From the NCBI GenBank assembly GCA_026388695.1, contig JAPLJH010000044.1:1-37663 (forward strand): a stretch of 37,663 bases of DNA. Reading direction: 5' to 3'. A program made the translations under genes and the position numbers. Within the stretch, counting starts at the first letter, position 1. Each line of letters begins with the position of its first letter. The stretch comes from Deltaproteobacteria bacterium. Lineage in GTDB: Bacteria; Desulfobacterota; Desulfobulbia; Desulfobulbales; Desulfurivibrionaceae. Below are positions 2,991-31,148 of the stretch, piece after piece. The notes below the pieces were generated by a model. The model was not told the DNA's origin. It saw only the letters and a program-made list of their open reading frames with translations, and did not search any database.

Positions 2991-3120
2991 GTAACTGTGT
3001 AGCAGTGCTGCAGATGCGCGAAAGAGACCTACAAAGTGTGCTATTGCACACAAGCGGGCCGATGACAGGTAAGCGAACCTGTGAGACTCCGAAGCAGATG
3101 CGGTGCTGCTGTCCAGTTAC
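2991..3120 (+). repeat. Structured intergenic element, copy 1 of 3 (likely RNA)
   Basis: The outer stem pairs 2991-3012 with 3099-3120; GTAACTG pairs with CAGTTAC at the ends, and the stem has one clear mismatch and several G-T pairs. Inside are a GTGTGC-TATT-GCACAC hairpin (about 3036-3051) and an ACAGGT...ACCTGT hairpin (about 3065-3082). The core motifs GCAGATGCGCG, GTGTGCTATTGCAC and GCAGATGC are shared with copies at 28073 and 31014. It sits between the divergent kdnB and darP genes, ending 28 nt before the darP start codon. Confidence 0.85.
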
Positions 3121-3148
3121 GCGAAATACTACTGTAGCGAGAACTTGC

Positions 3149-3760
3149 ATGGCAACTAAAAAATCAAGCAGCAGAGATACCGACCCGCAAGAAATTTACG
3201 TGAGCCGCTCTGAAAAGAAACGGCAGGCCAAGAACATCGAAGAGATCGCCAAAGAGCTGGTTGCTCTTTCCCCGGCCCTGATCAAAAAACTGCCCGCCGA
3301 CGATCTGTTAAAAACAGAACTCCACAACTCCCGCGACCTCAAAGGCGGCGCGCTCAAACGGCAGACCAAATTCATCGCCGGCCTGCTGCGAGAAAGGGCG
3401 AAAGAAACCGACGAGCTTCTTGCCTTCCTGACAGAACGCAAAGGTTCCCACCTGAAACAGACCGGGGAGTTCCACGAGCTGGAACGGCTACGGGAAGACA
3501 TTATCACCGAGGTAATCGAAGCGCGGGAGGAAGCCCAACGGGACCAGGAGCACCTCACGGAAAGCTGGCAATCTGAGACCATTGCCGTGGCCTGCCGCAG
3601 GTTCCCGGCCCTGGACCACAATGCCTTAAAAAAATCGGCCCTGCGCTATGCCGCCACCAGAAAGCCGGTGCATCGCAGGGAGATGTTCCGGCAACTGCAC
3701 GCCGCCATGGAGCGTCAGCAGTTTAGCGAGAAAACCCCGCCCGCCAGCGACGAGGCATAA
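3149..3760 (+). CDS. darP: DarP/YjgA (DUF615) ribosome-associated protein
   Basis: A 203-residue, strongly charged, helical protein. Its N-terminal part has YVSRSEKKRQAKNIEEIAKE, and its centre has the RQTKFIAGLLRER stretch typical of the DUF615 family (E. coli YjgA, renamed DarP), which helps late assembly of the 50S ribosomal subunit. The C-terminus is acidic and disordered (SEKTPPASDEA). I chose the ATG at 3149 because the frame upstream runs through the structured repeat and encodes a Cys-rich nonsense peptide. The Shine-Dalgarno is weak (GCGAGAAC). The family is best known from gamma- and betaproteobacteria; the match here is clear in the core but the protein is somewhat longer than the E. 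coli one. A PPC-domain gene starts 7 nt after the stop and probably shares the transcript. Confidence 0.82.
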   Translation: MATKKSSSRDTDPQEIYVSRSEKKRQAKNIEEIAKELVALSPALIKKLPADDLLKTELHNSRDLKGGALKRQTKFIAGLLRERAKETDELLAFLTERKGSHLKQTGEFHELERLREDIITEVIEAREEAQRDQEHLTESWQSETIAVACRRFPALDHNALKKSALRYAATRKPVHRREMFRQLHAAMERQQFSEKTPPASDEA

Positions 3761-3767
3761 GAACGCC

Positions 3768-4208
3768 ATGGAATACCGCACCGGCTCGATCAACCGGGTT
3801 TTCACCGTACGCTTTGACGAAGGGGATGACTTTCTCGATGGTCTGCGGCAGCTCATCATCAAAGAAAATATCCGCTGCGCCTGGTTCCATGTTTTGGGCG
3901 GCCTGCGCGAGGCCGGAGTGGTCACCGGCCCCAAGGAACCGGTCATGCCCCCGGAGCCGGTCTGGGCGCAAATAGACGGCGCCAGGGAAACCCTGGGCAG
4001 CGGCAGCATCTATTGGGATGAAACCGAGCCGCGCATCCACCTCCATGCCGCCTTGGGCCACCACGGCGACACCCTCACCGCCTGCGTACGCAAAGGCACC
4101 AAGGTCTATCTTATCCTTGAGGTTCTGATCCTCGAACTGGAAGGCATCGAAGCCACCCGCCCCTGGTTTGCCCAAGGAGGCTTCAATCGCCTCACCTTTG
4201 CCCCCTGA
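3768..4208 (+). CDS. PPC/DUF296 domain protein
   Basis: A 146-residue single-domain protein matching the plant-and-prokaryote conserved (PPC, DUF296) fold. It shows the N-terminal strand-loop RVFTVRFDEGDDFLDGL, the AWFHVLGGLREAGV segment, and a HLHAALGHHG motif. The His residues of this last motif bind a metal ion in structures of the prokaryotic family. Prokaryotic members are trimeric and of unknown function; in plants the domain occurs in AT-hook DNA-binding proteins. There is no AT-hook here, so DNA binding should not be assumed. The ATG at 3768 lies 7 nt after the darP stop, which suggests translational coupling; the frame is open further upstream but only over darP. No signal peptide or membrane segment is visible. 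Confidence 0.8.
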   Translation: MEYRTGSINRVFTVRFDEGDDFLDGLRQLIIKENIRCAWFHVLGGLREAGVVTGPKEPVMPPEPVWAQIDGARETLGSGSIYWDETEPRIHLHAALGHHGDTLTACVRKGTKVYLILEVLILELEGIEATRPWFAQGGFNRLTFAP

Positions 4209-4338
4209 CCTATCCCTGATTTTTCCATTTGACTTTTCCCCCGACTTTCCCGCATCATGGGAATAGTTCCCTGCAAAAAAATCACGCTGATGTTTGGCAT
4301 AGTGCTCATCCGCAACACACAGCAAGGGAGGAAAAACC

Positions 4339-4659
4339 ATGGCAACCAAAGAGAAAGCAAAAAAGGCACCCGCCGCCAAAAAATCACGGAAAACCGCGCC
4401 ATCATCCATCGAATTCACGGTGATGGCGCCCGAGGCCAAGGAGGTTTTTCTGGTGGGAGATTTCAACGGTTGGCAGGCGGAAGGTTTCCAGATGCGCAAG
4501 TTCAAGGACGGCGTCTGCCGAAAAAAAGTACAGCTCAAACCCGGACGCTACGAATACCTTTTTCTCGTTGACGGTGATTGGTGGACAGACCCCCAAAACG
4601 ACGCCTGTTGCCCCAATCCCTTTGGCATGGAAAACTCGATCATCCAGATCAACAGCTAA
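4339..4659 (+). CDS. Small CBM48 (isoamylase/AMPK-type) glycogen-binding domain protein
   Basis: A 106-residue protein with a Lys/Ala-rich tail at residues 1-20, then one carbohydrate-binding module 48. The module reads FTVMAPEAKEVFLVGDFNGW, followed by RYEYLFLVDGDWWTDP. The GDFNGW turn (40-45) and the following aromatic residues are the hallmark of AMPK-beta and branching-enzyme modules that bind alpha-glucans. There is no catalytic domain, so the protein may dock something onto glycogen or sense it. The paired ADP-glucose pyrophosphorylase genes at 25.4-27.9 kb indicate the cell makes glycogen. A strong Shine-Dalgarno, AAGGGAGG, precedes the ATG by about 7 nt. The 130-nt gap before it suggests its own promoter, but I could not pick one convincingly. 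Confidence 0.85.
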   Translation: MATKEKAKKAPAAKKSRKTAPSSIEFTVMAPEAKEVFLVGDFNGWQAEGFQMRKFKDGVCRKKVQLKPGRYEYLFLVDGDWWTDPQNDACCPNPFGMENSIIQINS

Positions 4660-4671
4660 AACACCGTTTAC

Positions 4672-4711
4672 AAAAAAAAGGCCCGTGCACACAAAGCGCG
4701 CACGGGCCTTT
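4672..4711. terminator. Bidirectional intrinsic terminator
   Basis: A 12-bp stem (AAAGGCCCGTGC at 4677-4688 with 4700-4711) and an 11-nt loop lie between the converging CBM48 and carboxyltransferase genes. On the - strand it runs into eight T residues (complement of 4672-4679), a strong signal. On the + strand it ends in CCTTTACTATT, which is weaker. Confidence 0.8.
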
Positions 4712-4736
4712 ACTATTCTAACACAATCGCTTCGGC

Positions 4737-6647
4737 TCAGGCGACGGGCGTCACCTTGATCAACTCATCGCCGGGCTGCACGGCGTCACCCACCTTGGCG
4801 ACAATCTTGCCAACCACCCCGTCCACCTCGCTGTTCACCGGGGTTTGCATCTTCATGGCCTCAAGGACCACCAGCTTCTCCCCGGCCTTTACTTCCTGGC
4901 CTTCCTGAACGGAAATCTCACAGATATTGGCAGTAAAAGGCGCCCGGACATCGCCGGCCTTGGCCAGGTCTTCGATCTCCTTCTTGCTCAGCTTGGCTGC
5001 CTTTGCCTCGCCAGCCTGGGCCACGGCGTTTTCAAAAACAAAATGCCGCTGGTGATGATCGATATTAAGATAGACGTTGGTTTCTGATCCGTCCTCATTC
5101 TCCTGCATGGGGCCCATCTCGACGATGTGCTCCTTACCGGTATGGTCTTTATAGGCAATGGTTTCTCCCAGCTTGAAGCCGCCCCGCCGGAAAAGAATGC
5201 TCGGCGGCAACACATAGACCTTGCCGAACTTCTCCTCAAAGCGGAAGAAATTCACCGCATCATTGGGATGCTGGAGATAGGTAACCAATTGCTGTTCGGT
5301 GGGTATGGAACCAAGCTTATCGGCCAAGGCCTTGCGCTCTTTCTCCAGATCAATATCCTCAATGGCCTCCATGCCGCCATCCCGCTCAAGTACCTGTTTC
5401 CACTCCGGCCCAAAGGCCTTCTCGTATATCCAGTCGGGCGGCGGATAGAAAGGAAAAGGCCCATATTTGCCGAGCAGCAGATTTTTCAGGTCGCCGGAGC
5501 AGTTACCGTAGCGTTCGCCGCCCTGCACGTTGCTCACCGCCGTGGTCCAGAGGATCTGGGAACCAGGCGTTACGCTCCAATAATTGCCCAACTCAATCTG
5601 GACCTTGGGCAGTTCCTTGTGGAGGATTTCCGGCATTTTGTCGAGGAAGCCGCCCTTGGCCGCCTGCTCCAGACTGCTGCCCATGGCGCCGCCCGGCAGC
5701 TTGTGGATCTGCACCGTGGGGTCAAAGCCCTTGATCTGAGATTCGAAGTACTCGTAGTATTTCCGCTCGGGCTGCAACACCTCGGAGGTTTCCATGATGG
5801 CCGCCTCGTTGATGCCCACGGCCTCGCGGCCGTACTCTTTCAGGGTATGGATGACGCTCAAAATCGGTGGCGGCCCGTAGTAGCCGGTGAAGGCGTGATC
5901 CGAAGCATCGACGATCTTGGCGCCAGACATGGCCGCAGAAACGATGCGGCCGATGTCGTTGCCATCGGTGTTATGGCCATGATAATGGATGACCATATCA
6001 GGATACTTCTGAAGAATCGCGTCCACCAGCTCGCCGATCCGCTTGGGCGAACCCAAGCCCCCGTGATTCTTAATGCAGAGGACGATCTCCTCCCCGGTGA
6101 CATCCAGAATTGCCTGGACCTTCTTCACATAAAACTCATTGGTATGTTCGGGACCCGTGGAAAAACAGATACACGGCTCCAGGATCTTGCCGGCAGCCTG
6201 CACCTCTTCAAAAACCGCCTGCATATTGGGTACATGGTTCATAAAATCGAACACCCGCCAGACGTCCACGTACTTGGCAAACTCCTTGACCACAAAACGG
6301 ATGACGTTTTGGGGATAGGGGCGGTAGCCGAAGAGGTTGATGCCACGGCATAGGGTCTGAAACATGGTCTTGGGCATCTTTTCCCGCAGCAATTCCAGCT
6401 TGAGAAAAGGATCCACCTGCTTACGGAGGATATCGACATGCACCGAGGCGCCGCCGGTGATCTCAAGAGAGAAATAACCGGCCTCTTCACGGGAGGGGGC
6501 GGCCAGCAAATCCGTATGCAACAGGATTCTGTTCTTGTAATCCGATTGCGACATATCACGGGCGGTATTGGTGATATAATACCCATCCGCTTTTCGCATA
6601 ATCTTGAGTACCTCAGTGATACCCATACCCTGAACAATGCGTTCCAT
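4737..6647 (-). CDS. pycB: Biotin-dependent carboxyltransferase subunit (pyruvate carboxylase B / oxaloacetate decarboxylase alpha type), divergent
   Basis: A 636-residue protein. An N-terminal carboxyltransferase barrel is followed by a conserved carboxylase region and a C-terminal biotinyl domain whose EAMKMQ motif places biotin on Lys599. The catalytic motifs are recognisable but unusual. RDMSQS replaces the common RDAHQS (metal ligand Asp31 kept). CIKNHGG replaces KDMAG (carbamylated Lys193 kept). HYHGHNTDG replaces HTHDTSG (metal ligands His221 and His223 kept). With the upstream biotin carboxylase it should move CO2 between biotin and a 2-oxoacid, probably pyruvate/oxaloacetate. A 2-oxoglutarate carboxylase or a transcarboxylase subunit is possible. 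I chose the ATG at 6647 because GATAGGAGTC precedes it; an in-frame ATG 33 nt upstream lacks a good site. Confidence 0.8.
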   Translation of the reverse strand: MERIVQGMGITEVLKIMRKADGYYITNTARDMSQSDYKNRILLHTDLLAAPSREEAGYFSLEITGGASVHVDILRKQVDPFLKLELLREKMPKTMFQTLCRGINLFGYRPYPQNVIRFVVKEFAKYVDVWRVFDFMNHVPNMQAVFEEVQAAGKILEPCICFSTGPEHTNEFYVKKVQAILDVTGEEIVLCIKNHGGLGSPKRIGELVDAILQKYPDMVIHYHGHNTDGNDIGRIVSAAMSGAKIVDASDHAFTGYYGPPPILSVIHTLKEYGREAVGINEAAIMETSEVLQPERKYYEYFESQIKGFDPTVQIHKLPGGAMGSSLEQAAKGGFLDKMPEILHKELPKVQIELGNYWSVTPGSQILWTTAVSNVQGGERYGNCSGDLKNLLLGKYGPFPFYPPPDWIYEKAFGPEWKQVLERDGGMEAIEDIDLEKERKALADKLGSIPTEQQLVTYLQHPNDAVNFFRFEEKFGKVYVLPPSILFRRGGFKLGETIAYKDHTGKEHIVEMGPMQENEDGSETNVYLNIDHHQRHFVFENAVAQAGEAKAAKLSKKEIEDLAKAGDVRAPFTANICEISVQEGQEVKAGEKLVVLEAMKMQTPVNSEVDGVVGKIVAKVGDAVQPGDELIKVTPVA

Positions 6648-6722
6648 GGCGACTCCTATCTTACACAGCAGTTGACCCAAAAGCGCCTTACGCCCTTCCG
6701 AACCAACAGGTAATTTTAAAAG

Positions 6723-8165
6723 TTAGACAGCGTAGGGATTTTCCCCTTTATAATGAATCTCTGCGATCAGATGGGCCAACTTGCTGCCTTCGCTGGCCTG
6801 GTCATCGTAATTGATCAGGTGCGAGTGGGTTTCAATGAAGGAGGTGTCAAAATCGCCCTTTTTGAAATCCGGATCCTGCACCAGATTCACATAGTAGGGA
6901 ATCGTTGTTTTCGGGCCGGTGATAACAAAGTTATTCAGGCAGCGGAGCAACCTGTCCACGGTTTCATTCCAGGAAAAACCGAAGACAGTCATCTTCACCA
7001 GGAGCGAATCGTACACCTTGGGAATGGTGAACCCTTGGTAGACAAAGCCGTCCAACCGCACGCCATAGCCGCCCGGCGAACGATAGACCGAAACGGTCTT
7101 GCCGCCTTCAGGCATGAAGTTGTTCTGCGGGTCCTCGGCATTGATCCGCATTTCCACGGCAAAACCCCGAATATGCACATCCTCCTGGCAAAAGGAAAGC
7201 TTCTTGCCCAGAGCCACTTTGATCTGGGTCCGGACGATATCGATACCGGTGACCATCTCGGTAACAGTATGCTCCACCTGCACCCGGGTGTTGATCTCCA
7301 TAAAATAAAATTTCCAGTCCCGATCAACGAGGAACTCCACGGTACCAGCATTCACATAATGTGAGGCCTTGGCCGCGGTAACGGCAGTCGCACAGATCAG
7401 GTCAACCAAGGCCTTGTCCTGGATCAGCGAGGGGGCGATCTCCACCAGTTTCTGATTCCGACGCTGGATCGAGCAGTCTCTGGAACCCAGATGCACGGTA
7501 TTGCCATCTTTATCGGCAATGACCTGCACCTCGACATGCTTGGGATTGATCACTGCTTTTTCAAGAAAGACCGCGTCGTTATTAAAGGCAGACTTTGCCT
7601 CGGCCCTGGCCATGGGAAGTTCGGCCCGCAGCTGCTTTTCGTTTTCCACCCGCCGGATGCCGCGCCCGCCGCCGCCGGCCGTGGCTTTCAGCATAACCGG
7701 ATAGCCGTATTTGTCGGCAAAATCAATGGCCTCTCTGAGACCGTGATCGCCAGCGGAGAGATTATCGGTACCGGGCACCATGGGGATTCCGGCCTCCATC
7801 ATGATCCGCCGGGCCGTTACCTTATCGCCCAAGGCTTGGATAACATCGGAGGGCGGACCGATGAAGATGATGCCATTGCTCTCACAAGCCTTGGCAAAAT
7901 CAGGATTTTCCGCCAAAAATCCGTACCCCGGATGGATAGCATCGACCCCTACTTTTTTGGCGACCCCGATAACCTTGTCGATGTTCAGATAATCGCAGCG
8001 GGGTCCATCGCCAATCCAGATGGCCTCGTCCGCTGTGCGGATATGCAGGGCATCCTTGTCCGGTGTTTCATAAATAGCCACGGCGATATGCCCAAGCTCT
8101 TGCACCGCCCGAATGATCCGCAGGGCAATTTCACCTCGGTTGGCTATTAAGATCTTCTTCTTCAA
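6723..8165 (-). CDS. pycA: Biotin carboxylase subunit (pyruvate carboxylase A / AccC type)
   Basis: A 480-residue ATP-grasp biotin carboxylase. It begins KKKILIANRGEIALRII and has the ATP-binding glycine loop KATAGGGGRGIRRV, the conserved HLGSRDCSIQRRNQK block, and the catalytic MEINTRVQVEHTVTE segment. It carboxylates the biotin carried by the downstream subunit, using ATP and bicarbonate. Length matches AccC and PycA. The start codon is TTG, supported by GAGGTGATCC just upstream and by conservation beginning at the next residue; no in-frame ATG fits. The downstream carboxyltransferase begins 75 nt later, so the two are a two-subunit carboxylase operon. No accB, accA or accD is nearby, which favours a 2-oxoacid carboxylase over acetyl-CoA carboxylase. 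Confidence 0.88.
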   Translation of the reverse strand: MKKKILIANRGEIALRIIRAVQELGHIAVAIYETPDKDALHIRTADEAIWIGDGPRCDYLNIDKVIGVAKKVGVDAIHPGYGFLAENPDFAKACESNGIIFIGPPSDVIQALGDKVTARRIMMEAGIPMVPGTDNLSAGDHGLREAIDFADKYGYPVMLKATAGGGGRGIRRVENEKQLRAELPMARAEAKSAFNNDAVFLEKAVINPKHVEVQVIADKDGNTVHLGSRDCSIQRRNQKLVEIAPSLIQDKALVDLICATAVTAAKASHYVNAGTVEFLVDRDWKFYFMEINTRVQVEHTVTEMVTGIDIVRTQIKVALGKKLSFCQEDVHIRGFAVEMRINAEDPQNNFMPEGGKTVSVYRSPGGYGVRLDGFVYQGFTIPKVYDSLLVKMTVFGFSWNETVDRLLRCLNNFVITGPKTTIPYYVNLVQDPDFKKGDFDTSFIETHSHLINYDDQASEGSKLAHLIAEIHYKGENPYAV

Positions 8166-8396
8166 CGGATCACCTCATTTAAGACAATTTTCAGGCCCAA
8201 AAAACCAACAAGTCAGCCCGTGTATATAAAAGTTTTCCTGTTTCAATCAGCGCAACACCGCCAAAAACCGCACAAAACAGTCATAGGGCAACACCCCACC
8301 CCAGACACTCAACTTTGCAAATTACCATACCGAATTTCCCAGGGCAACATTTTATGTCCACAAAAAAAAGAAGGGCCAGCGTTCCTCTGCCTGCGC

Positions 8397-8422
8397 AGAA
8401 TCCCTTGAAAAATCGGGATTCT
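8397..8422. terminator. Hairpin downstream of the GalT-like gene (weak terminator candidate)
   Basis: AGAATCCC at 8397-8404 pairs perfectly with GGGATTCT at 8415-8422, loop 10 nt. It lies just beyond the stop codon of the leftward gene at 8429. The T-run on the - strand is displaced about 25 nt further (complement of A8372-A8379), so termination here is uncertain. Confidence 0.35.
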
Positions 8423-8428
8423 TAGGGA

Positions 8429-10093
8429 TCAAGCCACGCCGCCCCCTTCTCTTTCAAGACCATCCAGCACCATGGGCAGATGCAGCCGACAGGCTGCGGC
8501 AAAATCCTCCGGAAAATGACCATTGACCCAACGCAACTGAGCCTCGCTGAAGGCGCCCATGGAATAAGGCAACTTGGGCAAAAGCGCATACAGCAGCCGC
8601 TGCCCGCCAGGCTTGGCCGTTATCCGGCTTGAATATTCGATACTGCTCACCAACCTAGCGCCCAAACGGGCAAGAATCTTCTGGGCGATGAGCAGGGCGC
8701 GGTCCAAGGCAGCGCGGGTGGCAGCGTCCGCTTCCAGAATATTTCCCACCGCCCCCAGGGGCATAATCTGCAATTCCCACTGGGAGGTCTGCGCCTTGGG
8801 CACGAAGAGCATTACCTTTTCATTTTCATACACAATCAGGCTGGTATTTTCATTTTCCAGCCCGTCCATCCGCCGGTTGTTACGGATCGCCTTAAGATAG
8901 GTACTGAAAAAATCGCAGCCCGTCTCTTTTTGGTATTGCTCACAGAACTCGGCAATGAGATCCCCGCAGGCGTAGCTTGGAATTGGCTCATCTGCGGCCT
9001 GACCGCCATGATGCCAGGCGGAAACCGTCTGCGGCAGCATGGCGAATTGCTGGTGGATCTGCTGATGCGAGGCATGGAGCCGGTAGCCGCTGGCCGAGAA
9101 ATCAAAGCCATAGTTCCAACCCCAAAGGGTGGCAGTGAAGGGCAAGGCCGGAGCATCTTTTTCCCGCAGGGCTTTTATCACCGCAAGCCGCAGCTCTTCG
9201 AGCTCGGTTCGGGTCATGGCCTTCCGGCCAGGCGGCAGGGGCAAGCCCAACTGGGCGGCAAGATGGAGAAAGGTACGCTGATAATAGAGGTGCCGCAGGC
9301 CCTGCATGTCGGCATCAGAAAGATCCGCCGTACTGTAACGGACAGCATCATCCGCCATGTTTGCGGCGTAATGCCCCCAAGGAATATAGCTGTTACGGCG
9401 CAGATACTCAAACACATGACAGCCCTGGGCCGCGCGGTACTCGCCCACGATTTCACTGCCCCCCTGCACTCCAGGTCGCAGGACCATGATCTTCCGGTAG
9501 GACTCGGGCAGATGGCGGTTGTTGACCACCACCTCAAACAGATCATGCCGGAGGATTCTGGCCTGCGCCGGACCATTGGCACCCCCTGCGTACCGCAAAC
9601 CGACCGGCTCTCCCGATCCATCGCGGAGAAATTCACAGCTCATGGCGGCCAGCGCCACCAAATCATCCTGGTCGGTAGAAGTCGCAGCCAGGGCCAGCAA
9701 AACGGTTTCCGGGAAAGCCGCGAAACTTTTTTGCAAATCCTGGGCCTCTCCGGCAGGCAAAATATCCTTTAACGCCTGGCGCATGGACACCGCCTGTGGC
9801 TCTGGCAATTTAATGGCGGCTGGACTTACCGCCTTGGGCACGGCCCAGGCGCTGCTGATGTAAGTAACTCCCCGAAACGGAAGGGGATTGACAATCTCAT
9901 AGACCGCATCTGCCTGACCAACCTGCAGATCGCCCTCGGGGAAATTCCTCTGGTTCAGATATGGATTATCGTCCGAAAATGCGCCGAGCGGCTCGACACA
10001 ATCATTTTCCCGCAGATTGGCAACCTGATATGCAGGCACATGCACGCCATAGACAAACTGTCCGGCAGGATGGACGCAGGAACGCACGGTCAT
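8429..10093 (-). CDS. GalT/HIT-superfamily-like protein of unknown function
   Basis: A 554-residue soluble protein that I do not recognise as a named family. Several stretches recall galactose-1-phosphate uridylyltransferase and other HIT-fold enzymes. LRHASHQQIHQQF-like spacing puts His340, His343 and His347 close together after GFDFSASGYR. A second half contains VMLFVPKAQTSQWELQIMPL, which has the strand pattern of the GalT C-terminal domain (PyEv..iP). The triad is not canonical, since the last His falls in IHQQF and not in HPHGQ. The substrate is unknown. A GGAGG site precedes the ATG by 8 nt. The gene is alone, divergent from a histidine kinase with 182 nt between them. There is no signal peptide or membrane span. 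Confidence 0.6.
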   Translation of the reverse strand: MTVRSCVHPAGQFVYGVHVPAYQVANLRENDCVEPLGAFSDDNPYLNQRNFPEGDLQVGQADAVYEIVNPLPFRGVTYISSAWAVPKAVSPAAIKLPEPQAVSMRQALKDILPAGEAQDLQKSFAAFPETVLLALAATSTDQDDLVALAAMSCEFLRDGSGEPVGLRYAGGANGPAQARILRHDLFEVVVNNRHLPESYRKIMVLRPGVQGGSEIVGEYRAAQGCHVFEYLRRNSYIPWGHYAANMADDAVRYSTADLSDADMQGLRHLYYQRTFLHLAAQLGLPLPPGRKAMTRTELEELRLAVIKALREKDAPALPFTATLWGWNYGFDFSASGYRLHASHQQIHQQFAMLPQTVSAWHHGGQAADEPIPSYACGDLIAEFCEQYQKETGCDFFSTYLKAIRNNRRMDGLENENTSLIVYENEKVMLFVPKAQTSQWELQIMPLGAVGNILEADAATRAALDRALLIAQKILARLGARLVSSIEYSSRITAKPGGQRLLYALLPKLPYSMGAFSEAQLRWVNGHFPEDFAAACRLHLPMVLDGLEREGGGVA

Positions 10094-10275
10094 ATCAAAA
10101 CCTCCGATGAATCACACGGGGAAGAGCGGCAAGGTTGCGCAGGGCGTAACTATAACCGGGAAACACACCTGCACTCCACAAGAAAAATCAAAAAAATCTC
10201 GACCTCGCTTGCCTTTGCCCTGAAATCTGCTACCATGGTGAAAAATCTATAGCCTCTTTCCTTCGGCCTCACGGT

Positions 10276-11403: not shown

Positions 11404-11446
11404 ACCGAGATATCCGGCAAAAACATTCGCCTTCTATTTTCCTCTG

Positions 11447-11474: not shown

Positions 11475-11549
11475 CCATCAGTTACCAGGGCATTGGTCCA
11501 TTTTTCAGACCTGCCCCAGCAAAACGTTTACAATCTTAAGGAGAATTAG

Positions 11550-12419: not shown

Positions 12420-12423
12420 GCAT

Positions 12424-13388: not shown

Positions 13389-13396
13389 CATGCAAT

Positions 13397-24178: not shown

Positions 24179-24328
24179 CCACCTCCGATCTCCGGTCCAC
24201 GCCCTTTTTTTTCACATTTTATTTTACAGTTCCCTGGCAGACAGAGTAACTATATAAAAGAATAGGCAGGATGCTGGGCCTCCCCGCGCACCCAGACCAC
24301 TACGCCGCCAGAAATTACGACAGGTGCC

Positions 24329-25249
24329 ATGAGCCCGAACAAAACCTTAAGTGACATCTTCAGCAAGGTCAACATGAGCGAGCTGCCGGCCATGTCCGAC
24401 CATGTCCAGGAGTTGCTCCGGCTCCTGAACCGTGATGATTCCAACGCTGAAGAAATCTCTGCGGTTATTCTCAAGGACGCCTCCCTGACCACCAAGCTGT
24501 TGCAGGTGGTCAATTCGGCCTTTTACAGCCGGGGAACCCCCATCTCCAACATCAGCCGGGCCATCACCGCCCTTGGCCTCACCACCTTAAAGGAGCTGGC
24601 CGTCAGCCTGGCCCTGTTCGAGGATTTTCTCAAGGCCGGGGTCGAAAAGGAAGAAATCAGCAAGCTCCTGGCCCTGTGTTTTCTCAGCGCCACCCAGGCA
24701 AAGATTCTCTGCAAGGTCAAGAAAATCAACGTGCCGGAGGAAGAGGTCTTCATCTGCACCCTGCTGCACCAACTGGGCAAGCTTGTCATCCTGGTCTATC
24801 TGCCGGAGCTGTACCGCAAGGCCCAAGAGCTCATCGACCGTGGCTACTCCGATGAATTTGCCGCCAAAACCGTATTAAACGACCTCACCTTTTCCACCGT
24901 GGGCATGGAAATCGCCCGCTTCTGGAATTTTTCCGAAAAGATCGTCCTGAGCATGGGGGATAATCCGCCCCAACCAACCAGCAAACTCGACTCCCAGCTC
25001 TACCTCCTCAATGTGGCGGCCTTCTGCAACCGCCTGACCTGGACTCTCTGCTACGGCTCAAGCCTGGAGCTGGGCGAACTGATCCTGCACTACGGACCCA
25101 TGATGGGTCTCAACAGACGGGAGGCCTTTGGCCTGGCCAACAGAAGTCTGGATGTCGCCGAAGCGATGCCGGACAACATCATCCGTTTCGGCCTTGCCAA
25201 ACTCAAAATCCGCACCAAGATATCACAGAAAGAAAAGGCGAGCCGCTGA
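24329..25249 (+). CDS. HDOD domain signalling protein
   Basis: A 306-residue protein built around an HDOD domain (about 10-210). Diagnostic stretches are LPAMSDHVQELLRLLNRDD, ILKDASLTTKLLQVVNSAFY and ISNISRAITALGLTTLKEL. The position of a catalytic HD pair reads LLHQLGKLV, so the Asp is replaced by Gln and phosphohydrolase activity is unlikely, as is usual for HDOD proteins. The C-terminal 90 residues are helical and unassigned. HDOD proteins act as adaptors in motility, c-di-GMP and stress signalling. The gene is alone, 150 nt after the PAS protein, and converges on glgC; I found no clear terminator between them. The ATG has only ACAGGTGCC upstream. Confidence 0.9.
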   Translation: MSPNKTLSDIFSKVNMSELPAMSDHVQELLRLLNRDDSNAEEISAVILKDASLTTKLLQVVNSAFYSRGTPISNISRAITALGLTTLKELAVSLALFEDFLKAGVEKEEISKLLALCFLSATQAKILCKVKKINVPEEEVFICTLLHQLGKLVILVYLPELYRKAQELIDRGYSDEFAAKTVLNDLTFSTVGMEIARFWNFSEKIVLSMGDNPPQPTSKLDSQLYLLNVAAFCNRLTWTLCYGSSLELGELILHYGPMMGLNRREAFGLANRSLDVAEAMPDNIIRFGLAKLKIRTKISQKEKASR

Positions 25250-25389
25250 AGCCCAGCTTACGAGCACGGGGAACTGGGGCCAACAAGAGACAAAGCGAGG
25301 GGAAAACTACGGTTGAGCTCGGTTCAGGCCGCCCAACACAGCCACGCCCCGGTTGAAAGCAGCACAACCCTACCCGCAAACCCAACGGA

Positions 25390-26655
25390 TCAGATGGTTT
25401 CCCCGGTGGCGACGACCAACGAAGAAAAATCCCCTGCCTTGCAGGAAGGCGTTACCACACAGTTGCGTCCGATCACGGCCTGGGGCGGCACCTCCGCCTC
25501 CTTGCCGATCATGGTGATCCCGGTGTAGAGATGTTTGGGGCAGGCCTTGTTGGGCGTGGCCTTGTCCTCACCCTGCCCCACCACCGCGCCAAGGCCTACC
25601 CGGACTCTTTTATCAAGAATAGCCAAGTCCACCACGGCCCCTTCCTCTAAAACACAGTCGTGCAAAATGATCGAATCCCTGACCCGGACATTCTTTCCCA
25701 CCAGCACCCCAGGGGAAAGCACCGAATTGATCACCTCGCCTTCGATGACGCAGCCGGCGGAGATCATGGAACCCTCCACCTTGCAGCCGCGGACAAAACG
25801 GGCAGGGCAACGGTCCACCAGCAGCCGGTCCGCATAGGGGTTGGGCCGGATACCCCAGGCCTGCGGGGAGATCTCCGAATCGACTTTAAGTAAATCCATG
25901 TTTGCCTGCCAGTACGCCTGGACCGTACCCACATCCCGCCAGTAGCCGTGGAATGGGTAAGCAAAAACATTATCCCGTTCAATGGCCTTGGGGATAAGAT
26001 GCATACCGAAATCCACCTCCTCGCGGTCTTCCTCCAGAAGCCGGAGCAGATATTCGGTGTCAAACACATAGATTCCCATGGAGGCCAGATCGGTACGGGG
26101 CACCTTGGGTTTTTCCTCCCATTCGACGATGCGGCCTTCACCGTTGGTTATCCCTGCGCCGAACTGGTGGATCTCGGAAAGCGGCACCACCATCATGGCG
26201 ATGGTCACCTGGGCCTGCTTGCGGCGGTGGAAACGGAGCATGTCGTCGAGATCCATGCGGTAGATGTGGTCCCCGGACAAAATAACCGTCTCCTTGGCAG
26301 GATGCTCCCGGATAAAATCGATGTTCTGCCGCACCGCATCGGCGGTGCCCTTGTACCAGTCGGAATCGTGAGCCCCGGTGCGGGGGGGCAGGATCTTGAT
26401 CCCCCTGGTGCGGCCCGTGAAATCCCAGGCCTCGCCGGTGCCGAGATGGCGCATCAAGGAAAGCGGTTTGTACTGGGTGAGCACCCCGACCTGACTTAAG
26501 CCCGAATTCATCACGTTGCTCAAGGAAAAATCAATAATCCGGTAGAACCCGGCAAAGGGCACCGCTGGCTTGGCCCTGGTCTGCACCAGGACATTGAGGC
26601 GGCTGCCGACCCCGCCGGCCAGCAGGAGAACCAGGGTGTTGTCGCCTTGGATCAT
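25390..26655 (-). CDS. glgC: Glucose-1-phosphate adenylyltransferase, catalytic-type subunit
   Basis: A 421-residue ADP-glucose pyrophosphorylase, which makes ADP-glucose from ATP and glucose-1-phosphate for glycogen. The nucleotidyltransferase half has LAGGVGSRLN (Arg19 in place), RAKPAVPFAG, GDHIYRMD (catalytic Asp129), EEKPK and the metal-ligand segment GYWRDVGT (Asp241). The C-terminal half is a left-handed beta-helix of hexapeptide-like repeats (VIEGEVINSVLSPGVLVGKN). Its start overlaps the stop of the upstream paralogue by 4 nt, so both are made together. Of the two paralogues this one keeps all catalytic residues I can check, so it is the likely active subunit. The ribosome site lies inside the upstream gene. 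Confidence 0.9.
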   Translation of the reverse strand: MIQGDNTLVLLLAGGVGSRLNVLVQTRAKPAVPFAGFYRIIDFSLSNVMNSGLSQVGVLTQYKPLSLMRHLGTGEAWDFTGRTRGIKILPPRTGAHDSDWYKGTADAVRQNIDFIREHPAKETVILSGDHIYRMDLDDMLRFHRRKQAQVTIAMMVVPLSEIHQFGAGITNGEGRIVEWEEKPKVPRTDLASMGIYVFDTEYLLRLLEEDREEVDFGMHLIPKAIERDNVFAYPFHGYWRDVGTVQAYWQANMDLLKVDSEISPQAWGIRPNPYADRLLVDRCPARFVRGCKVEGSMISAGCVIEGEVINSVLSPGVLVGKNVRVRDSIILHDCVLEEGAVVDLAILDKRVRVGLGAVVGQGEDKATPNKACPKHLYTGITMIGKEAEVPPQAVIGRNCVVTPSCKAGDFSSLVVATGETI

Positions 26656-27911
26656 CGGACCACCTCGTTGTTGCCGATTTCCCCGACCATCTGCTCCGGG
26701 CGCAGATTCGGGTGCAGGGTGCAGCCGGAGCCGACCACCATGCCGTCCAGCACATGATTATTCCAGCCGACCACCGTCACCTTGTCGGCCTGGGGCGGCC
26801 CTGGTTCGCCGATCCGCACCCGAGCCCCGAAGGTCACGTTGACATCGCTCACCACCGTGTCGAGGATGGCGCCGTGCCCCACCACATTATCGTAAAAGAG
26901 CACCGAGTTTTTCACCTCCGCCCCGGACTTGACGTGGACCCCAGGAAAGAGGATGGAGTTTTCCACCCGCCCCTCCACCACACAGCCGTTATAGATCAGG
27001 CTGTTTTCGATGCTGGCTCCAGGACCCACCTTAAGAGGCTGGCAATCCCGGACCGCCCTGTGCTCCAGGTTGGTACGGATGCCCCAGTCCGCAAGCTGGA
27101 TCTTTGGTTCCGGCCCCAGCAGGTCCATGTTGGTCTGCCAATATTCGGCAACGGTGCGGGTGTACCCCCAATAGCCGTGAAACTTAAAACCGTAGACCTT
27201 GCGCTGGCTCGCCATGATCCGAGGCAGGATATCCCGGCCAAACTCAAAGGAATCATCCTCCCTGGCGTTGGTCTCCAGCACCTCATAGAGCACCGAGGGC
27301 TTGAAGCAGTACACGGTGAGCGAGGCCCAATTGAATTTTGGATCAACCGGTTTTTCCTGGTACTGATGGATGCGGCCGCCGCGCTCACCGTCCTCGTCAT
27401 CAATCTCCGCCACCCCGAACCGGCTGGCCTCGGCCATGGGCACCTGCAGGCAGGCGATGGTCAGGTCTGCGTCCTTGTCCCGATGGTACTGGAGGATCTC
27501 CCGATAATCCATGTGATAGACGTGGTCGCCGGAGAGCACCAGAATGGTTTCCGGGTCGTGGTACTGGACAAAATCGAGATTCTGATGGATGGCGTCGGCC
27601 GAGCCCCGGTACCAGCTACTCTGCCCCGAACTTTGCGAAGGAGGAAGGATGGAAACCCCGCGATAACGACCGGTCATATCCCAGGCCGCGCCAACGCCGA
27701 TATGGCTGATCAGGGAAAAGCTCCGGTACTGGCTGAGGATGGCGACCCGTTCCAGGCCGGAGTGCATGAGATTGCTCAGGGCGAAATCGATCATCCTGGC
27801 AAAACCGCCAAAGGGAACAGCCGACTTGGGCCGGTAGGCGGTGAGCACGTTCAGCTCGTCAACGCGCCCCCCGGCAAGGATCATGGCCAGAACCTTCGGT
27901 TTCAGTTTCAT
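26652..27911 (-). CDS. GlgC paralogue with degenerate active site, probable regulatory subunit
   Basis: A 419-residue homologue of the downstream GlgC, colinear over its whole length (nucleotidyltransferase domain plus beta-helix). It retains RPKSAVPFGG, WYRGSADAI, GDHVYHMD and EKP. Two catalytic segments are altered: LAGGRVDEL replaces LAGG(x)GSRL, losing the Arg that contacts the nucleotide phosphates, and GYWGYTRT replaces GYWRDVGT, losing the metal-binding Asp. This resembles the regulatory, weakly or non-catalytic subunits of heteromeric enzymes (Bacillus GlgD, plant large subunit). It is translationally coupled to glgC by a 4-nt overlap. CAGGAATTCC precedes the ATG, and a promoter lies about 73 nt upstream. 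That it forms a heterotetramer is inferred. Confidence 0.82.
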   Translation of the reverse strand: MKLKPKVLAMILAGGRVDELNVLTAYRPKSAVPFGGFARMIDFALSNLMHSGLERVAILSQYRSFSLISHIGVGAAWDMTGRYRGVSILPPSQSSGQSSWYRGSADAIHQNLDFVQYHDPETILVLSGDHVYHMDYREILQYHRDKDADLTIACLQVPMAEASRFGVAEIDDEDGERGGRIHQYQEKPVDPKFNWASLTVYCFKPSVLYEVLETNAREDDSFEFGRDILPRIMASQRKVYGFKFHGYWGYTRTVAEYWQTNMDLLGPEPKIQLADWGIRTNLEHRAVRDCQPLKVGPGASIENSLIYNGCVVEGRVENSILFPGVHVKSGAEVKNSVLFYDNVVGHGAILDTVVSDVNVTFGARVRIGEPGPPQADKVTVVGWNNHVLDGMVVGSGCTLHPNLRPEQMVGEIGNNEVVR

Positions 27912-27983
27912 GGAATTCCTGAAGAAAGAGGAGAAGCCGGGTAACGGCTCCTAAAATTCTGCTGCGATTCCTGATTGCAAAAC

Positions 27984-28012
27984 CATTATGGAAAGGGTTG
28001 CGCCAAAAAGCA
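27984..28012 (-). promoter_or_regulatory. Sigma-70-like promoter of the glgC pair
   Basis: On the - strand TTGCTT (28012-28007), a 17-nt spacer and CATAAT (27989-27984). The -10 matches 5 of 6 consensus bases. It lies between copy 2 of the structured repeat and the first glgC-like gene. Confidence 0.5.
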
Positions 28013-28072
28013 AGCACGGGAAGGGGGAGAGAGGAAAAAGATTTTTAGCAGGTGTTGAACCGGGCACAAGAT

Positions 28073-28201
28073 AGGCGATTACCGGGCGGTGCAGATGCGC
28101 GGAAGAGGCTGGCGAAGTGTGCTATTGCACATGAGCCTGCCGATGACAGCTAAGCGAGCGTAGCGAGACTGCGAGGCAGATGCGCTGCCCTGTGATCACC
28201 T
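28073..28201 (+). repeat. Structured intergenic element, copy 2 of 3 (likely RNA)
   Basis: The outer stem pairs 28073-28093 with 28181-28201, with two mismatches and three G-T pairs. Its sequence is different from the other copies. The core includes GCAGATGCGCGG, GTGTGCTATTGCACAT, GGCTGGC pairing with GCCTGCC around that hairpin, GCTA...TAGC, and GCAGATGCGC. The strand that tolerates the wobbles is +, antisense to both neighbouring leftward genes. Its right arm ends just before the stop codon of the DHH gene (28203-28205). Confidence 0.85.
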
Positions 28202-28202
28202 A

Positions 28203-29225
28203 CTATAGCAGATGTTTGGTGGTAAGCCGCATCAGGGTCTTGGTGGAAAAATCCTGCATCTCCGCAGGCAGATTCCGAAGCGGCACCTCGGCTCTGGCCG
28301 CTTCCCGATGGCCGCCCGCCGAGCCGATCGCATGGAACATCTTCTCCGCCAGCCGTCCGGCATTTTTCTTGTAGCCGTCGCAACGGAAGATGACCACCAG
28401 CTTATCGTTGTGCAGACCGGAGACGAAAACCCAAGCCACATCGTGGACCTGATTGAGAAAATCAGCGATGAGCACCAGCATATCCGGGCTGGGAACCTTG
28501 CCCAGATGGGCATACAGCCGCTGCTTGCTCACCTTCATCTCGTTGAGGGCGGTCTTGAAATAATTCAGCTCGGAGCGGCGGAAGGAGGACAACTCAATCT
28601 TGCGGACCAGATTCTGGTTGGCGATATTAAAGAGATAGCGGAAGGAAATAGCATCCGCCAGGGTGGCCTTTTTCTCGAAATTTCGGGTATCCACCTTGAT
28701 TGCATAAAAAAGGGCGGTGGCCAGCGCCACCGAGGGTTTGAGGCTGGCAGCGCGCAGATACTCGACAAGCATGGAGGCGGTGGCGCCGAAATCCTTACGG
28801 ATATCGACAAAGGGAGCCACCCAGCCCTTGGTGGCGGGATGGTGGTCAATGACCACATCAAAGGTGATATTCTCGAAGCAGGGCAAATGGCTGGGCTGGG
28901 AATCCAGCATCACCTTTTTAGTATAATCCCCGATTTTTATCGTGTGCAGACGTTCCATGGGGATCTTCAGCAGATCCACCATAACCACATTGTTGAGCCG
29001 CCTGATTTCGTTGGGATAGGCGATGGTGACGTTTTTCACCCGGTAGCGGAGCAGCCGCTTCAGGGCCATGGCGCTGGCAATAGCATCCGGGTCGGCGTTG
29101 ATGATCACCAGAACCTGGTCATCCTTGCCAAAAAGACCGCACAACTCGAGCAGGCGCTCCTTGGCGGTTTTCTTTTTGTTGGATACCGGTTTTTTGGGAA
29201 CTTCCAAACTTCCGTTCACGCCCAC
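28203..29225 (-). CDS. DHH-family phosphoesterase (NrnA/RecJ-like)
   Basis: A 340-residue DHH/DHHA1 protein. Metal-binding motifs are NADPDAIASAMAL (DxD, motif I), MLDSQPSH (motif II), VIDHHP (DHH, motif III) and GATASMLVEYL (motif IV). GSAGGHREAA near the C-terminus is the DHHA1 substrate-binding GGH. This is the layout of nano-RNases and pAp/c-di-nucleotide phosphodiesterases. The first motif has Asn where many members have His, which could affect activity or shift metal binding. The start is a GTG at 29225 with GGGGATGATGG upstream; the first 20 residues are basic and poorly conserved, and a later GTG at 29219 is possible. The substrate cannot be read from the sequence. Confidence 0.85.
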   Translation of the reverse strand: MGVNGSLEVPKKPVSNKKKTAKERLLELCGLFGKDDQVLVIINADPDAIASAMALKRLLRYRVKNVTIAYPNEIRRLNNVVMVDLLKIPMERLHTIKIGDYTKKVMLDSQPSHLPCFENITFDVVIDHHPATKGWVAPFVDIRKDFGATASMLVEYLRAASLKPSVALATALFYAIKVDTRNFEKKATLADAISFRYLFNIANQNLVRKIELSSFRRSELNYFKTALNEMKVSKQRLYAHLGKVPSPDMLVLIADFLNQVHDVAWVFVSGLHNDKLVVIFRCDGYKKNAGRLAEKMFHAIGSAGGHREAARAEVPLRNLPAEMQDFSTKTLMRLTTKHLL

Positions 29226-29347
29226 GCCATCATCCCCGCCGTCCGTTAAACCCAGGCCAAAACCTGCCTCCTGCCCCCACTACTATACCAGACAACCGAT
29301 GCCCTATACCACATGCTGGGATAAATTTCAAAGGTTTGCCCTTGGGT

Positions 29348-30895
29348 CTATTCTCCGTCAAAGAACGGGACCGAGGGAAACAGCGCAGGATCGGTGTGGG
29401 GAATAAAGCGGGAGCCGGAAAAACGGAGCATAAACTCCTGATTGACGTTCAATTCGATATAGGTGATCTTTTTCACCAGCTCCAAGCTCCGTTCCCGCGC
29501 GGCTCTTTCAAGGAGTATCCGCTGGGCGCCCACCAGGGAGCTATTGCCCACAGGCTCATAGGTGGCAAGGGGTAGATCGGGCAGCATCCCCAGAACAATG
29601 GCCTGCCTCGGCGAGATGTGCCGCCCGAAGGCCCCGGCCACATAAATGCGGTGCAAGTCGGCAAAGGCGACGCCCACCTGATTGGTCAGGGTGGTAAGGA
29701 TGGCATACATAGCCGCCTTGGAGCGCATGAGCGCGTCGAGATCCACCTGCCCTAAAACCACAGGCTGGCCATCCGCCGAATCCTTGCCCGGAACCACCAC
29801 AAACTGGTAGCCTTCGCTTCCCTGGATCAGCCGGCCGCCGGCCGCCTGGGGCCGAAACTTGCCCCGGATATCGATCTGCCTGGTCAGGTACAACTCGGCC
29901 ACCAGATCGATGAGCCCGGAGCCGCAGAGCCCCTTGGGCTTGCCCTTGCCGATGGTTTGATAAGTGATCTCCCCGCTGGCCGGATCGATCTGCACATGCT
30001 CGATGGCCCCGGGGCCTGCCCGCATGCCCATCCGAGCCACGCCGCCTTCGAGAGCCGGACCTGCCGCGCCAGCACAGGCGATGAGCCATTCCCGGTTGCC
30101 GACAATCACCTCGGCATTGGTGCCCACATCGATGAGCATGCAGGTCTCCGCCTGCTGGTCAAGGCCGCTGGCCAAAACGCCGGAGATCAGATCCCCGCCG
30201 AAATAACTGCCCACGCTGGGCAGCAACCAGACCGGCGCGGCCGGATGGATGGCCAGATGGAGTTCTCCGGCCAGACAGGGGTCCGGGGCGTTGACCATGG
30301 GGATATACGGTTCGCGGCAGAGATGGTAGGGATTGAGTTTAAGAAAAAAATGCACCATACTGGTGTTGCCGGACACCGAAAGCGCCCGGATCTCGGCCAT
30401 TGCCAAGCCGGAATCCCTGGCCAGCTCCGCAGCCAGGGCATTGACCGAATCGATAATCGCCCGGTGCAGCTCGGCCAGGCCCTCGTCCTTGCCAGCATGA
30501 TGGATGCGGGTGAGGATATCCGCGCCGAAACGGATCTGGCCGTTTTCCAGATCGGCCCGGGCCAGGGTTGCGCCGGTGGCCAAATCAAGCAGGGTTGCTT
30601 CGAGGTGGGTGGTCCCAAGGTCAAGGGCCATCCCGGCAAGAACCGGCGGCGACTGGGGGAGGAAATCAACCAGAAGCGGGGTGCCCAGCATATCATTGAT
30701 AATGGCAGCACCGGTAAAGCCTGCGGCGCGAAAGCGCTCGGCCACCTTGCTCAGACGCTGATACGGCACCACCGGCATGGCCCCATCCAACTGCGGGGCA
30801 AGCGCCTTCTTCAACCGGTCGAGATCGCCGGTGTTATCGCCAAGACTGGGAGGGGGTGCGGCCACCACAACGGCGCGCACCAAGGAATTCAGCAT
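29348..30895 (-). CDS. RACo/DUF4445-like ASKHA protein lacking the ferredoxin domain
   Basis: A 515-residue protein matching the middle and C-terminal ASKHA parts of reductive activators of corrinoid proteins (RACo, DUF4445). It shows AGMALDLGTTHLEATLLDL (phosphate 1, about 106-124), SGNTSMVHFFL, MLIDVGTNAEVIVGN, AGPALEGG and VAGAFGRHISPRQAI. RACo uses ATP to push an electron from an N-terminal [2Fe-2S] domain onto cobalamin. Here the protein starts at LVRAVVVAAPPPSL, just after where that domain would end, and no ferredoxin is visible upstream in this frame, which reaches a stop near 30954. The ATG at 30895 has no clear ribosome site. No corrinoid or methyltransferase genes are near. Either it uses a separate ferredoxin or the gene is 5'-truncated. 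Confidence 0.75.
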   Translation of the reverse strand: MLNSLVRAVVVAAPPPSLGDNTGDLDRLKKALAPQLDGAMPVVPYQRLSKVAERFRAAGFTGAAIINDMLGTPLLVDFLPQSPPVLAGMALDLGTTHLEATLLDLATGATLARADLENGQIRFGADILTRIHHAGKDEGLAELHRAIIDSVNALAAELARDSGLAMAEIRALSVSGNTSMVHFFLKLNPYHLCREPYIPMVNAPDPCLAGELHLAIHPAAPVWLLPSVGSYFGGDLISGVLASGLDQQAETCMLIDVGTNAEVIVGNREWLIACAGAAGPALEGGVARMGMRAGPGAIEHVQIDPASGEITYQTIGKGKPKGLCGSGLIDLVAELYLTRQIDIRGKFRPQAAGGRLIQGSEGYQFVVVPGKDSADGQPVVLGQVDLDALMRSKAAMYAILTTLTNQVGVAFADLHRIYVAGAFGRHISPRQAIVLGMLPDLPLATYEPVGNSSLVGAQRILLERAARERSLELVKKITYIELNVNQEFMLRFSGSRFIPHTDPALFPSVPFFDGE

Positions 30896-31013
30896 AAACA
30901 GGCAACCCCGAGAATATTCTTCATAAGCAACGGCATCCTGCCCAACATACTATGTCGGCTGCCAAGAAAAGTCCCTAAAAAAAAATGGCCGCCCCCGCCC
31001 TAATTCTCTCTCA

Positions 31014-31148
31014 ACGGAACCGTTCATCAGTGCCGCAGATGCGCGGAAGAGGTTTGCGAAGTGTGCTATTGCACATGAGCAGACCGATAACAGCTAAGCG
31101 AACGTAGCGAGACTGCGAAGCAGATGCAGTGCTGATGAACGGTTCCGT
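31014..31148 (+). repeat. Structured intergenic element, copy 3 of 3 (likely RNA)
   Basis: ACGGAACCGTTCATCAG at 31014-31030 pairs perfectly with 31132-31148, and the stem continues inward to about 31037/31125 with G-T pairs and one mismatch. The core has GCAGATGCGCGG, GGTTTGC pairing with GCAGACC around a TGTGC-TATT-GCACA hairpin, GCTA...TAGC, and GCAGATGCAG. It ends 80 nt before the lptF start codon, immediately upstream of a candidate promoter. Confidence 0.88.

What the first reader, a model, noticed from the sequence alone, without database searches (positions are those of the whole stretch)
2991..31148. Three-copy intergenic element whose outer stem changes sequence but keeps its pairing
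Copies at 2991-3120, 28073-28201 and 31014-31148 share a core (GCAGATGCGCG, GTGTGCTATTGCAC, GCAGATGC). Each is closed by an outer stem of about 22 positions. The stem sequences differ: GTAACTG/CAGTTAC, AGGCGATTACC with its partner, and ACGGAACCGTTCATCAG with its perfect complement. Pairing is kept in all three. An inner stem around the TATT hairpin also changes in a compensating way (GGCTGGC/GCCTGCC versus GGTTTGC/GCAGACC; weaker in copy 1). Simple transposons keep their end sequences, so this points to selection on a folded RNA. I do not recognise the family.
Basis: seen in the sequence. Interest (0 to 1): 0.82.

Follow-up and report, generated by a model that had tools for sequence, protein, structure and literature searches.

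The report
Jumping repeat with conserved RNA-like hairpin
The three copies belong to a large family of short jumping DNA repeats, found through much of one order of sulfur bacteria, whose ends and target duplications look like a miniature transposon but whose right-hand part folds into one conserved hairpin that keeps its pairing while its sequence changes.

Summary
In detail: 2991-3120, 28072-28202 and 31016-31146 are copies of one folded element. It is a miniature transposon (MITE), not a plain RNA gene: canonically 151 bp, GTAA...TTAC ends, 8-bp target duplications (50 of 248 copies; 0 with a displaced 8-mer). At least 38 copies lie in this genome; matches occur in 17 of 17 genomes of the genus and, by covariance model, in 122 of 193 of the order.

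The covariation is real and is not a by-product of matching termini. In 47 copies with a verified duplication the right arm pairs with the inner left arm at 19.7-19.9 of 20 positions, with the true left terminus at 13.5-13.7. At orthologous sites 58 Watson-Crick double changes keep pairing, against 1-4 with slid partners. G.U exceeds A.C on the folding strand (87 to 45).

Best reading: an IS66/ISBst12-like MITE whose plus strand is selected as a fold, probably RNA; template switching may contribute. No IS66 transposase was found in 17 genus genomes; Rfam has no match.

The parts
2945..3120 (+). Copy 1, whole element (176 bp): left terminus, lead, hairpin part; no recognisable target duplication, an old copy shared with orthologues L045, L078 and L090
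   Evidence: Sequence; orthologous copies over the same span
2945..2957 (+). Left terminus (L1) of copy 1, GTAACTATCCAAC
   Evidence: the same arm beside 8-bp duplications in other copies
2991..3120 (+). Copy 1, hairpin part (arms L2 2991-3010 and R 3101-3120)
   Evidence: 92.1 bits, E 1.5e-22; fold z -5.1
3036..3050 (+). Apical hairpin GTGTGCTATTGCACA of copy 1
3010..3017 (+). GCAGATGC, 5' half of the helix with a tandem G.A step (partner 3094-3101)
   Evidence: GA/GA in 114 of 137 copies not found by the core pattern
28072..28202 (+). Copy 2, hairpin part; its right end touches the stop codon of the - strand ORF 28203-29225
   Evidence: 91.7 bits, E 1.9e-22; ORF; fold z -6.2
31016..31146 (+). 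Copy 3, hairpin part; pairing extends two more bases each side (31014-31148)
   Evidence: 107.7 bits, E 9e-27; fold z -10.1

Best explanation
Each copy is a non-autonomous miniature transposon. Shown: the canonical element is 151 bp, runs from GTAA to TTAC, is flanked by an 8-bp target duplication, and consists of a left terminus (L1, about 13 bp), a lead of about 32 nt, and a hairpin part (arm L2, core, arm R, about 106 nt). R is at once the right terminus of the transposon and the 3' arm of the hairpin. Shown: R co-varies with L2 over 20 positions, not with L1, and does so also after insertion, at orthologous sites. Shown: the plus strand folds better and tolerates G.U more than A.C. Inferred: a transposase of the IS66 family, ISBst12-like, moves it in trans, because the ends and duplication match that group. 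Inferred: the fold is maintained as a single-stranded molecule of the plus strand, most likely an RNA made from the element, that helps the element to move or persist, for example as a binding site for a host or transposition protein. Resident copies then keep the pairing by compensating changes, with some one-step repair by template switching.
For: Target duplications: 50 of 248 copies with at most one mismatch beside an L1-like end, 0 with a displaced 8-mer; 12 of 44 copies from outside the genus, control 1. Empty sites. Ends: ISDge4 of the ISBst12 group, IS66 family, has TIRs GTGACTACTCAGCA / GTAACTGCTCAGCA and an 8-bp repeat (PMC12898284, passages). Of 30 IS66 loci of the order read here, 6 show GTAA ends with an exact 8-bp duplication. 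L2 against L1: in 35 genus copies R pairs with L2 at 19.7 of 20 and with L1 at 13.5; in 12 distant copies 19.9 and 13.7; where L1 and L2 differ (columns 5-13) R fits only L2 59 times and only L1 4 times, and 19 to 0 in distant copies. Covariation on 38 copies. At 35 orthologous groups (89 copies): 58 Watson-Crick double changes in register, 1-4 when slid. Strand: GU 87, AC 45 over 16 columns; inner helices P1b 18 to 4, P2 79 to 30; plus strand folds better in the three window copies and in three distant ones. Order-wide fold: 122 of 193 genomes, 49 of 62 genera, 134 matches in one single-contig genome.
Against: No IS66 transposase domain (PF03050) in 17 of 17 genomes of the genus, so the mobiliser is missing or extinct there. 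Not every empty site fits: for the second copy in L047 the orthologue L104 lacks only the hairpin part, and at one site L053 has L1 and lead but no hairpin where L105 and L125 have the whole. A canonical copy (L188) shows no promoter-like or terminator-like match inside it. Where the lead aligns well, it seems (by eye on the pair list) to diverge no faster than the core, so purifying selection on the core is not shown. Double changes are transversions more often than transitions (33 to 26), which fits one-step template switching as well as selection. In 7 locus-states one arm is converted at both wobble columns. Columns 1-7 alone show no significant G.U excess (26 to 18), and the P2 figure is dominated by one column (49 to 11). 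Relatedness of copies makes these p-values optimistic.
Confidence: 0.72

Rival explanations
1. The hairpin is maintained by mutation, not selection: template switching during replication copies one arm onto the other, so a plain MITE hairpin stays paired while its sequence drifts.
For: The mechanism is proposed for RNA hairpins (PMC8794818, abstract and discussion read). In 7 of 163 locus-states one arm is converted at both wobble columns (5 left, 2 right); from the column totals of the same table I would expect about 1.0 and 0.5. The five left-converted arms are paired almost perfectly throughout. Doubles include 33 transversions of 59.
Against: Template switching should erase wobble pairs, yet the tandem U.G/G.U step is kept in 158 of 201 genus copies and 24 of 44 distant ones, and 121 of 163 locus-states have both founder wobbles. 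It gives no reason for more G.U than A.C (87 to 45), nor for the conserved loops and GA step.
Confidence: 0.3
2. The co-varying arms are transposase binding sites (two on the left, one on the right) that change together as the transposase changes specificity; folding is incidental.
For: L1, L2 and R share GTAA and most of 13 positions, and subfamilies with different ends exist.
Against: R follows L2 and not L1 when they differ (59 to 4 and 19 to 0), the match L2-R runs 20 positions with strand-specific wobble, and arms change in place at orthologous sites after insertion.
Confidence: 0.08
3. Single-stranded DNA of the plus strand, not RNA, is the selected fold, for example as a structure met by replication or by the transposition machinery.
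For: G.T is tolerated in DNA hairpins as well (general knowledge). In the near-closed genome G007 the plus strand lies on the strand of negative GC skew in 18 of 20 copies, and 70 of 101 loci have negative local skew on that strand.
Against: Gene orientation is confounded with replication direction, and no single-strand transposase was sought. The 8-bp duplications point to a double-strand DDE transposase.
Confidence: 0.25
4. The element serves the host as a 3'-end hairpin or terminator of the gene that runs into its right end.
For: In 87 of 163 loci the right end lies within 7 bp of the stop codon of a convergent gene (my own crude gene caller).
Against: The mRNA would then carry the weaker minus strand, where the wobbles become A.C. 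Tight and other loci do not differ in A content beside the stem (4.76 against 4.73 A in 12 nt). Copies with a duplication sit there less often (11 of 33 non-divergent loci, hand count of the listing), so survival in short gaps between genes may explain it.
Confidence: 0.12

Closest known systems
IS66 family, ISBst12 group (ISDge4)
   Same: GTAA ends, near-identical terminal sequence (GTAACTGCTCAGCA), 8-bp target duplication (PMC12898284, passages)
   Different: No transposase gene in the element; none of the family in 17 genomes of the genus; the right end doubles as a hairpin arm
BOX, RUP and SPRITE repeats of pneumococcus
   Same: Short dispersed repeats with stable predicted RNA folds, modular forms, and copies that supply the stop codon of a gene (36 cases for BOX) (PMC3049150, passages)
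   Different: No sequence comparison was made; 'compensatory' does not occur in that text; the present family spans an order
Enterobacterial RU repeats (RU-1, RU-2, RU-3; I recall ERIC as one of these)
   Same: Intergenic repeats of 103-168 bp likened to MITEs (PMC2759123, start of abstract in the listing)
   Different: No alignment was made here; difference in sequence is assumed, not tested
MITEAba12
   Same: Bacterial MITE with target duplications and terminal repeats (PMC6382973, passages)
   Different: 9-bp duplications and a coresident partner IS; no inner hairpin is mentioned in the passages seen
REPIN / REP elements with RAYT
   Same: Dispersed non-autonomous palindromic repeats (PMC3116915, start of abstract in the listing, and recalled)
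   Different: Here there are 8-bp duplications and 13-bp termini; a RAYT partner was not sought

Membership tests
MITE (non-autonomous DNA transposon) | Short dispersed repeat without a transposase gene | tested here: met
   Canonical length 151 bp; 38 copies read in G000, 134 model matches in G028
MITE (non-autonomous DNA transposon) | Terminal inverted repeats | tested here: met
   L1 against R: 13.5 of 20 positions pair, mostly the outer 13
MITE (non-autonomous DNA transposon) | Target-site duplication and empty sites | tested here: met
   50 of 248 copies, control 0; empty orthologous sites
IS66 family / ISBst12 group derivative | GTAA ends and 8-bp duplication | tested here: met
   6 of 30 IS66 loci of the order show the same
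IS66 family / ISBst12 group derivative | Terminal sequence shared with an ISBst12-group IS | tested here: met
   ISDge4 ends as printed in PMC12898284; compared by eye
IS66 family / ISBst12 group derivative | A matching autonomous IS in the same or a close genome | tested here: not met
   PF03050 in 0 of 17 genus genomes. 73 of 193 genomes of the order have it; none of the 30 loci read has both ends within 3 mismatches of GTAACTGTTCAGCA. Two sister-genus IS66 copies end GTAAGCGCTCAATG / GTAAGCGCTCAGCA, near the GTAAGCG subfamily only
Known structured RNA (Rfam 15) | Match to a covariance model | tested here: not met
   Only a tRNA in the window at gathering thresholds; no match at E up to 1 for copies 1 and 3
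Conserved structured RNA | Compensating changes above controls | tested here: met
Conserved structured RNA | It is transcribed | not testable with these tools
   No expression data
REP / RAYT or IS200/IS605 type element | No target duplication on insertion (recalled) | tested here: not met
   Duplications of 8 bp are present
REP / RAYT or IS200/IS605 type element | Y1 transposase partner | not tested
   Not sought

The most novel reading that the evidence does not exclude
A DDE-type mobile element that carries no protein but a conserved structured RNA, folded from its own right end, which takes part in its transposition or target choice; the right terminus is under a double constraint, as transposon end and as hairpin arm, across a bacterial order.
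Probability: 0.2. Interest if true: 0.92.

Novelty: new variant of a known kind. Interest (0 to 1): 0.72.

Why it matters
176 loci were examined here and 42 of them hold copies in more than one record. Such sites make a natural experiment on how paired stems evolve: through wobble intermediates under selection, or by one-step template switching. That is an open question (PMC8794818, discussion). If the fold matters for movement, it adds a structured RNA to a transposon class that is thought to need only DNA ends and a transposase. For annotation, it is a repeat family through much of an order, without an Rfam match, that supplies stop codons to genes. I found no description of it in the listings (open-access library only).

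Tried and rejected
Known RNA family: rejected, no Rfam match. Plain RNA gene in three copies: rejected by copy number, duplications and empty sites. Genus-restricted element: my first impression from the exact loop pattern was wrong; the covariance model finds it through the order and in 9 genomes outside it among 297 sampled in the phylum. Intrinsic terminator: no support. Purifying selection on the core measured by divergence: inconclusive; the pooled difference over 49 pairs (core 0.088, arms 0.130, lead 0.247) comes largely from distant pairs in which the lead hardly aligns. Plasmid and phage carriers: no match. Replication-strand orientation: strong in G007 (18 of 20) but weaker elsewhere (70 of 101) and confounded with gene direction; in G028 the 13 listed matches lie on both strands, skew not measured. 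Ectopic gene conversion of cores: suggested by hairpin modules that come and go at the same sites and by cores of orthologues being only slightly closer than those of other copies (0.065 against 0.080), not resolved.

Biases to note. The 112 named loci (80 shown) were found by an exact 32-base core pattern, so those core columns are nearly fixed there by construction; core counts leave these loci out. From the matches listed I fetched only part: 20 of 21 in G007, 40 of 49 in G008, 20 of 30 in G014 and 20 of 38 in G006, besides one locus each brought in by that search. In one search, 18 of 248 copies could not be put in register and 9 of the other 230 fell below 70% paired, so 221 entered the wobble counts; this filter favours G.U slightly. 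The excess in distant copies (106 to 7) is inflated because the model itself rewards G.U; I do not lean on it.
Full report
WHAT WAS CHECKED. The three stretches were read, aligned and folded on both strands. They are three copies of one element on the + strand. No shuffle of 200 folds as well as any of them on the + strand (z -5.1, -6.2, -10.1); the - strand is weaker (z -3.3, -3.0, -6.5). A covariance model made from 38 copies, the three window copies among them, finds these three and no others in the window. Rfam 15 reports only a tRNA in the window and nothing up to E = 1 for copies 1 and 3.

HOW MANY COPIES AND WHERE. The loop sequence with up to two mismatches has 43 matches in the window's genome (2.58 Mb, 114 contigs). 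Of the places fetched, L001-L035 read as copies and L036 and L037 as chance hits; some matches are one copy read on both strands. With the three in the window that makes 38; the model later placed at least one more (C41). With one mismatch allowed, 17 of 17 genomes of the genus match, with 5 to 49 hits each; of 11 genomes outside it one has a single hit. Named hosts in the public genome set are MAGs labelled Desulfobulbaceae, Desulfurivibrio, Desulfobacterales, Deltaproteobacteria or Proteobacteria (capped list). The covariance model then showed a much wider range: 122 of 193 genomes of the order and 49 of 62 genera at E up to 0.001. Among 15 genomes searched more deeply, counts reach 134 in a single-contig 3.1-Mb genome of a sister genus and 133, 81 and 75 in others, and fall to 4. 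In a phylum sample 15 of 297 genomes match at E up to 1e-4, nine of them outside the order. Plasmid and phage collections gave no match.

IT IS A TRANSPOSON. There a third arm lies (L1, typically GTAACTATCCAGC), so the full element runs GTAA...TTAC, canonically 151 bp. Two sites do not fit simply: L104 lacks only the hairpin part found in L047, and L053 has L1 and lead without the hairpin found in L105 and L125. Eight-base target duplications flank the element: 50 of 248 copies have one with at most one mismatch beside an L1-like end, and none do when the right-hand 8-mer is displaced. Outside the genus 12 of 44 copies do, control 1. Copy 1 of the window has L1 at 2945-2957 but no surviving duplication. 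For copies 2 and 3 no L1 was listed.

WHICH KIND. GTAA ends and 8-bp duplications are, from memory, the marks of the IS66 family; 6 of 30 IS66 loci of the same order show both exactly. The closest printed ends I saw are those of ISDge4, ISBst12 group: GTGACTACTCAGCA and GTAACTGCTCAGCA with an 8-bp repeat (PMC12898284, passages). No IS66 transposase domain occurs in 17 of 17 genomes of the genus, although 73 of 193 genomes of the order have one. Two sister-genus IS66 copies end GTAAGCGCTCAATG and GTAAGCGCTCAGCA. So the ends are ISBst12-like, but descent from that group is not proved.

THE COVARIATION IS REAL. On 38 copies 96.7% of cells pair; 102 cells have both sides changed against 21.4 +/- 4.0 in shuffles and 11-15 with slid partners. 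The sharper test uses copies at the same site in different species. Over 35 orthologous groups (89 copies) there are 58 Watson-Crick to Watson-Crick double changes in register and 1-4 when the partner is slid. Examples are L052/L116, L007/L100/L111 and L035/L050/L094/L137. So compensation goes on after insertion. It is also not explained by transposon ends having to match each other. In copies with a verified duplication the right end pairs with the inner arm L2 at 19.7 (genus, n = 35) and 19.9 (distant, n = 12) of 20 positions, and with the true terminus L1 at 13.5 and 13.7. Where L1 and L2 differ, R fits only L2 in 59 and 19 cases and only L1 in 4 and 0.

WHICH STRAND. In 16 outer-stem columns whose founder pair is Watson-Crick, G.U states outnumber A.C states 87 to 45, counted once per locus (176 loci; p = 3e-4 if loci were independent, which they are not fully). 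This comes from the inner part (61 to 27); columns 1-7 alone show no significant excess (26 to 18). Inner helices agree (P1b 18 to 4; P2 79 to 30, mostly one column). A tandem U.G/G.U step is kept in 158 of 201 genus copies and 24 of 44 distant ones; the mirror C.A/A.C step occurs once in the 201. Three distant copies also fold better on this strand. This fits selection on the plus strand as a single strand, RNA or DNA.

RIVAL: TEMPLATE SWITCHING. Replication can copy one arm of a hairpin onto the other (PMC8794818, abstract and discussion). Signs of it are present: in 7 of 163 locus-states one arm is converted at both wobble columns, five of them with nearly perfect arms, and 33 of 59 doubles are transversions. 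But it would erase the wobble step that most loci keep (121 of 163 locus-states with both founder wobbles). I think both act.

CONTEXT. With a crude gene caller of my own, the right end lies within 7 bp of the stop codon of a convergent gene in 87 of 163 loci, in 26 of them with the element's own TAA as stop (distance -4). Copy 2 is such a case (ORF 28203-29225). Pneumococcal BOX repeats supply the stop codon in 36 cases (PMC3049150, passages). No terminator signature goes with it. Copies with a duplication show it less often (11 of 33 non-divergent loci, hand count of the listing), so survival in short intergenic gaps is a sufficient explanation. In the near-closed genome G007 the plus strand lies on the negative-skew strand in 18 of 20 copies. 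Across 101 loci the figure is 70, and gene direction is confounded with it.

MODULES. Extra hairpins are inserted at fixed junctions in some copies and absent from their orthologues. Other copies have a different core between the same arms. One 77-bp copy is almost only lead and palindrome, with nearly the same target duplication as a 283-bp element in another species (L182 and L160).

VERDICT. A MITE spread through an order, whose right end is also one arm of a conserved structure, without an Rfam match and not described in the listings I could search, is a new variant of a known kind. Whether the fold is an RNA, and what it does, needs experiments.

Noticed in passing
L054, L057, L089, L092, L106, L135, L149 and others; L043 at another junction: A 26-27 nt hairpin module (TGTCAAT.GTCGGCAG.AGTGCCGAC) is inserted at one fixed junction of the core in several copies, most often in one genome, and at a second junction in L043; some orthologues lack it.
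   Followed up: partly
L006, L012, L016, L039, L104, L109, L119 (left arm); L006, L022, L046, L066 (right side): A second module (CGCCGCTTCGCTGCTG) sits in the left arm; its near reverse complement is inserted on the right side in some of the same copies, so the two could pair.
   Followed up: no
L049, L051, L059, L089, L092, L115, L158: Same arms, different core between them: variant families that share the transposon frame.
   Followed up: partly
L182 and L160: Nearly the same target duplication (TCCCTTAA; one mismatch in one copy) holds a 77-bp element that is mostly lead and palindrome in one species and a 283-bp element in another.
   Followed up: no
87 of 163 loci, e.g. window 28202/28203: The element's right end abuts the stop codon of a convergent gene, in 26 loci supplying TAA itself.
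   Followed up: partly
G007 contig C1: Copies are oriented by replichore: 18 of 20 with the plus strand on the negative GC-skew strand.
   Followed up: partly
[quoted passage not shown] possibly a tertiary contact.
   Followed up: no
window 37578-37649: An ordinary tRNA gene at the right edge of the window.
   Followed up: no
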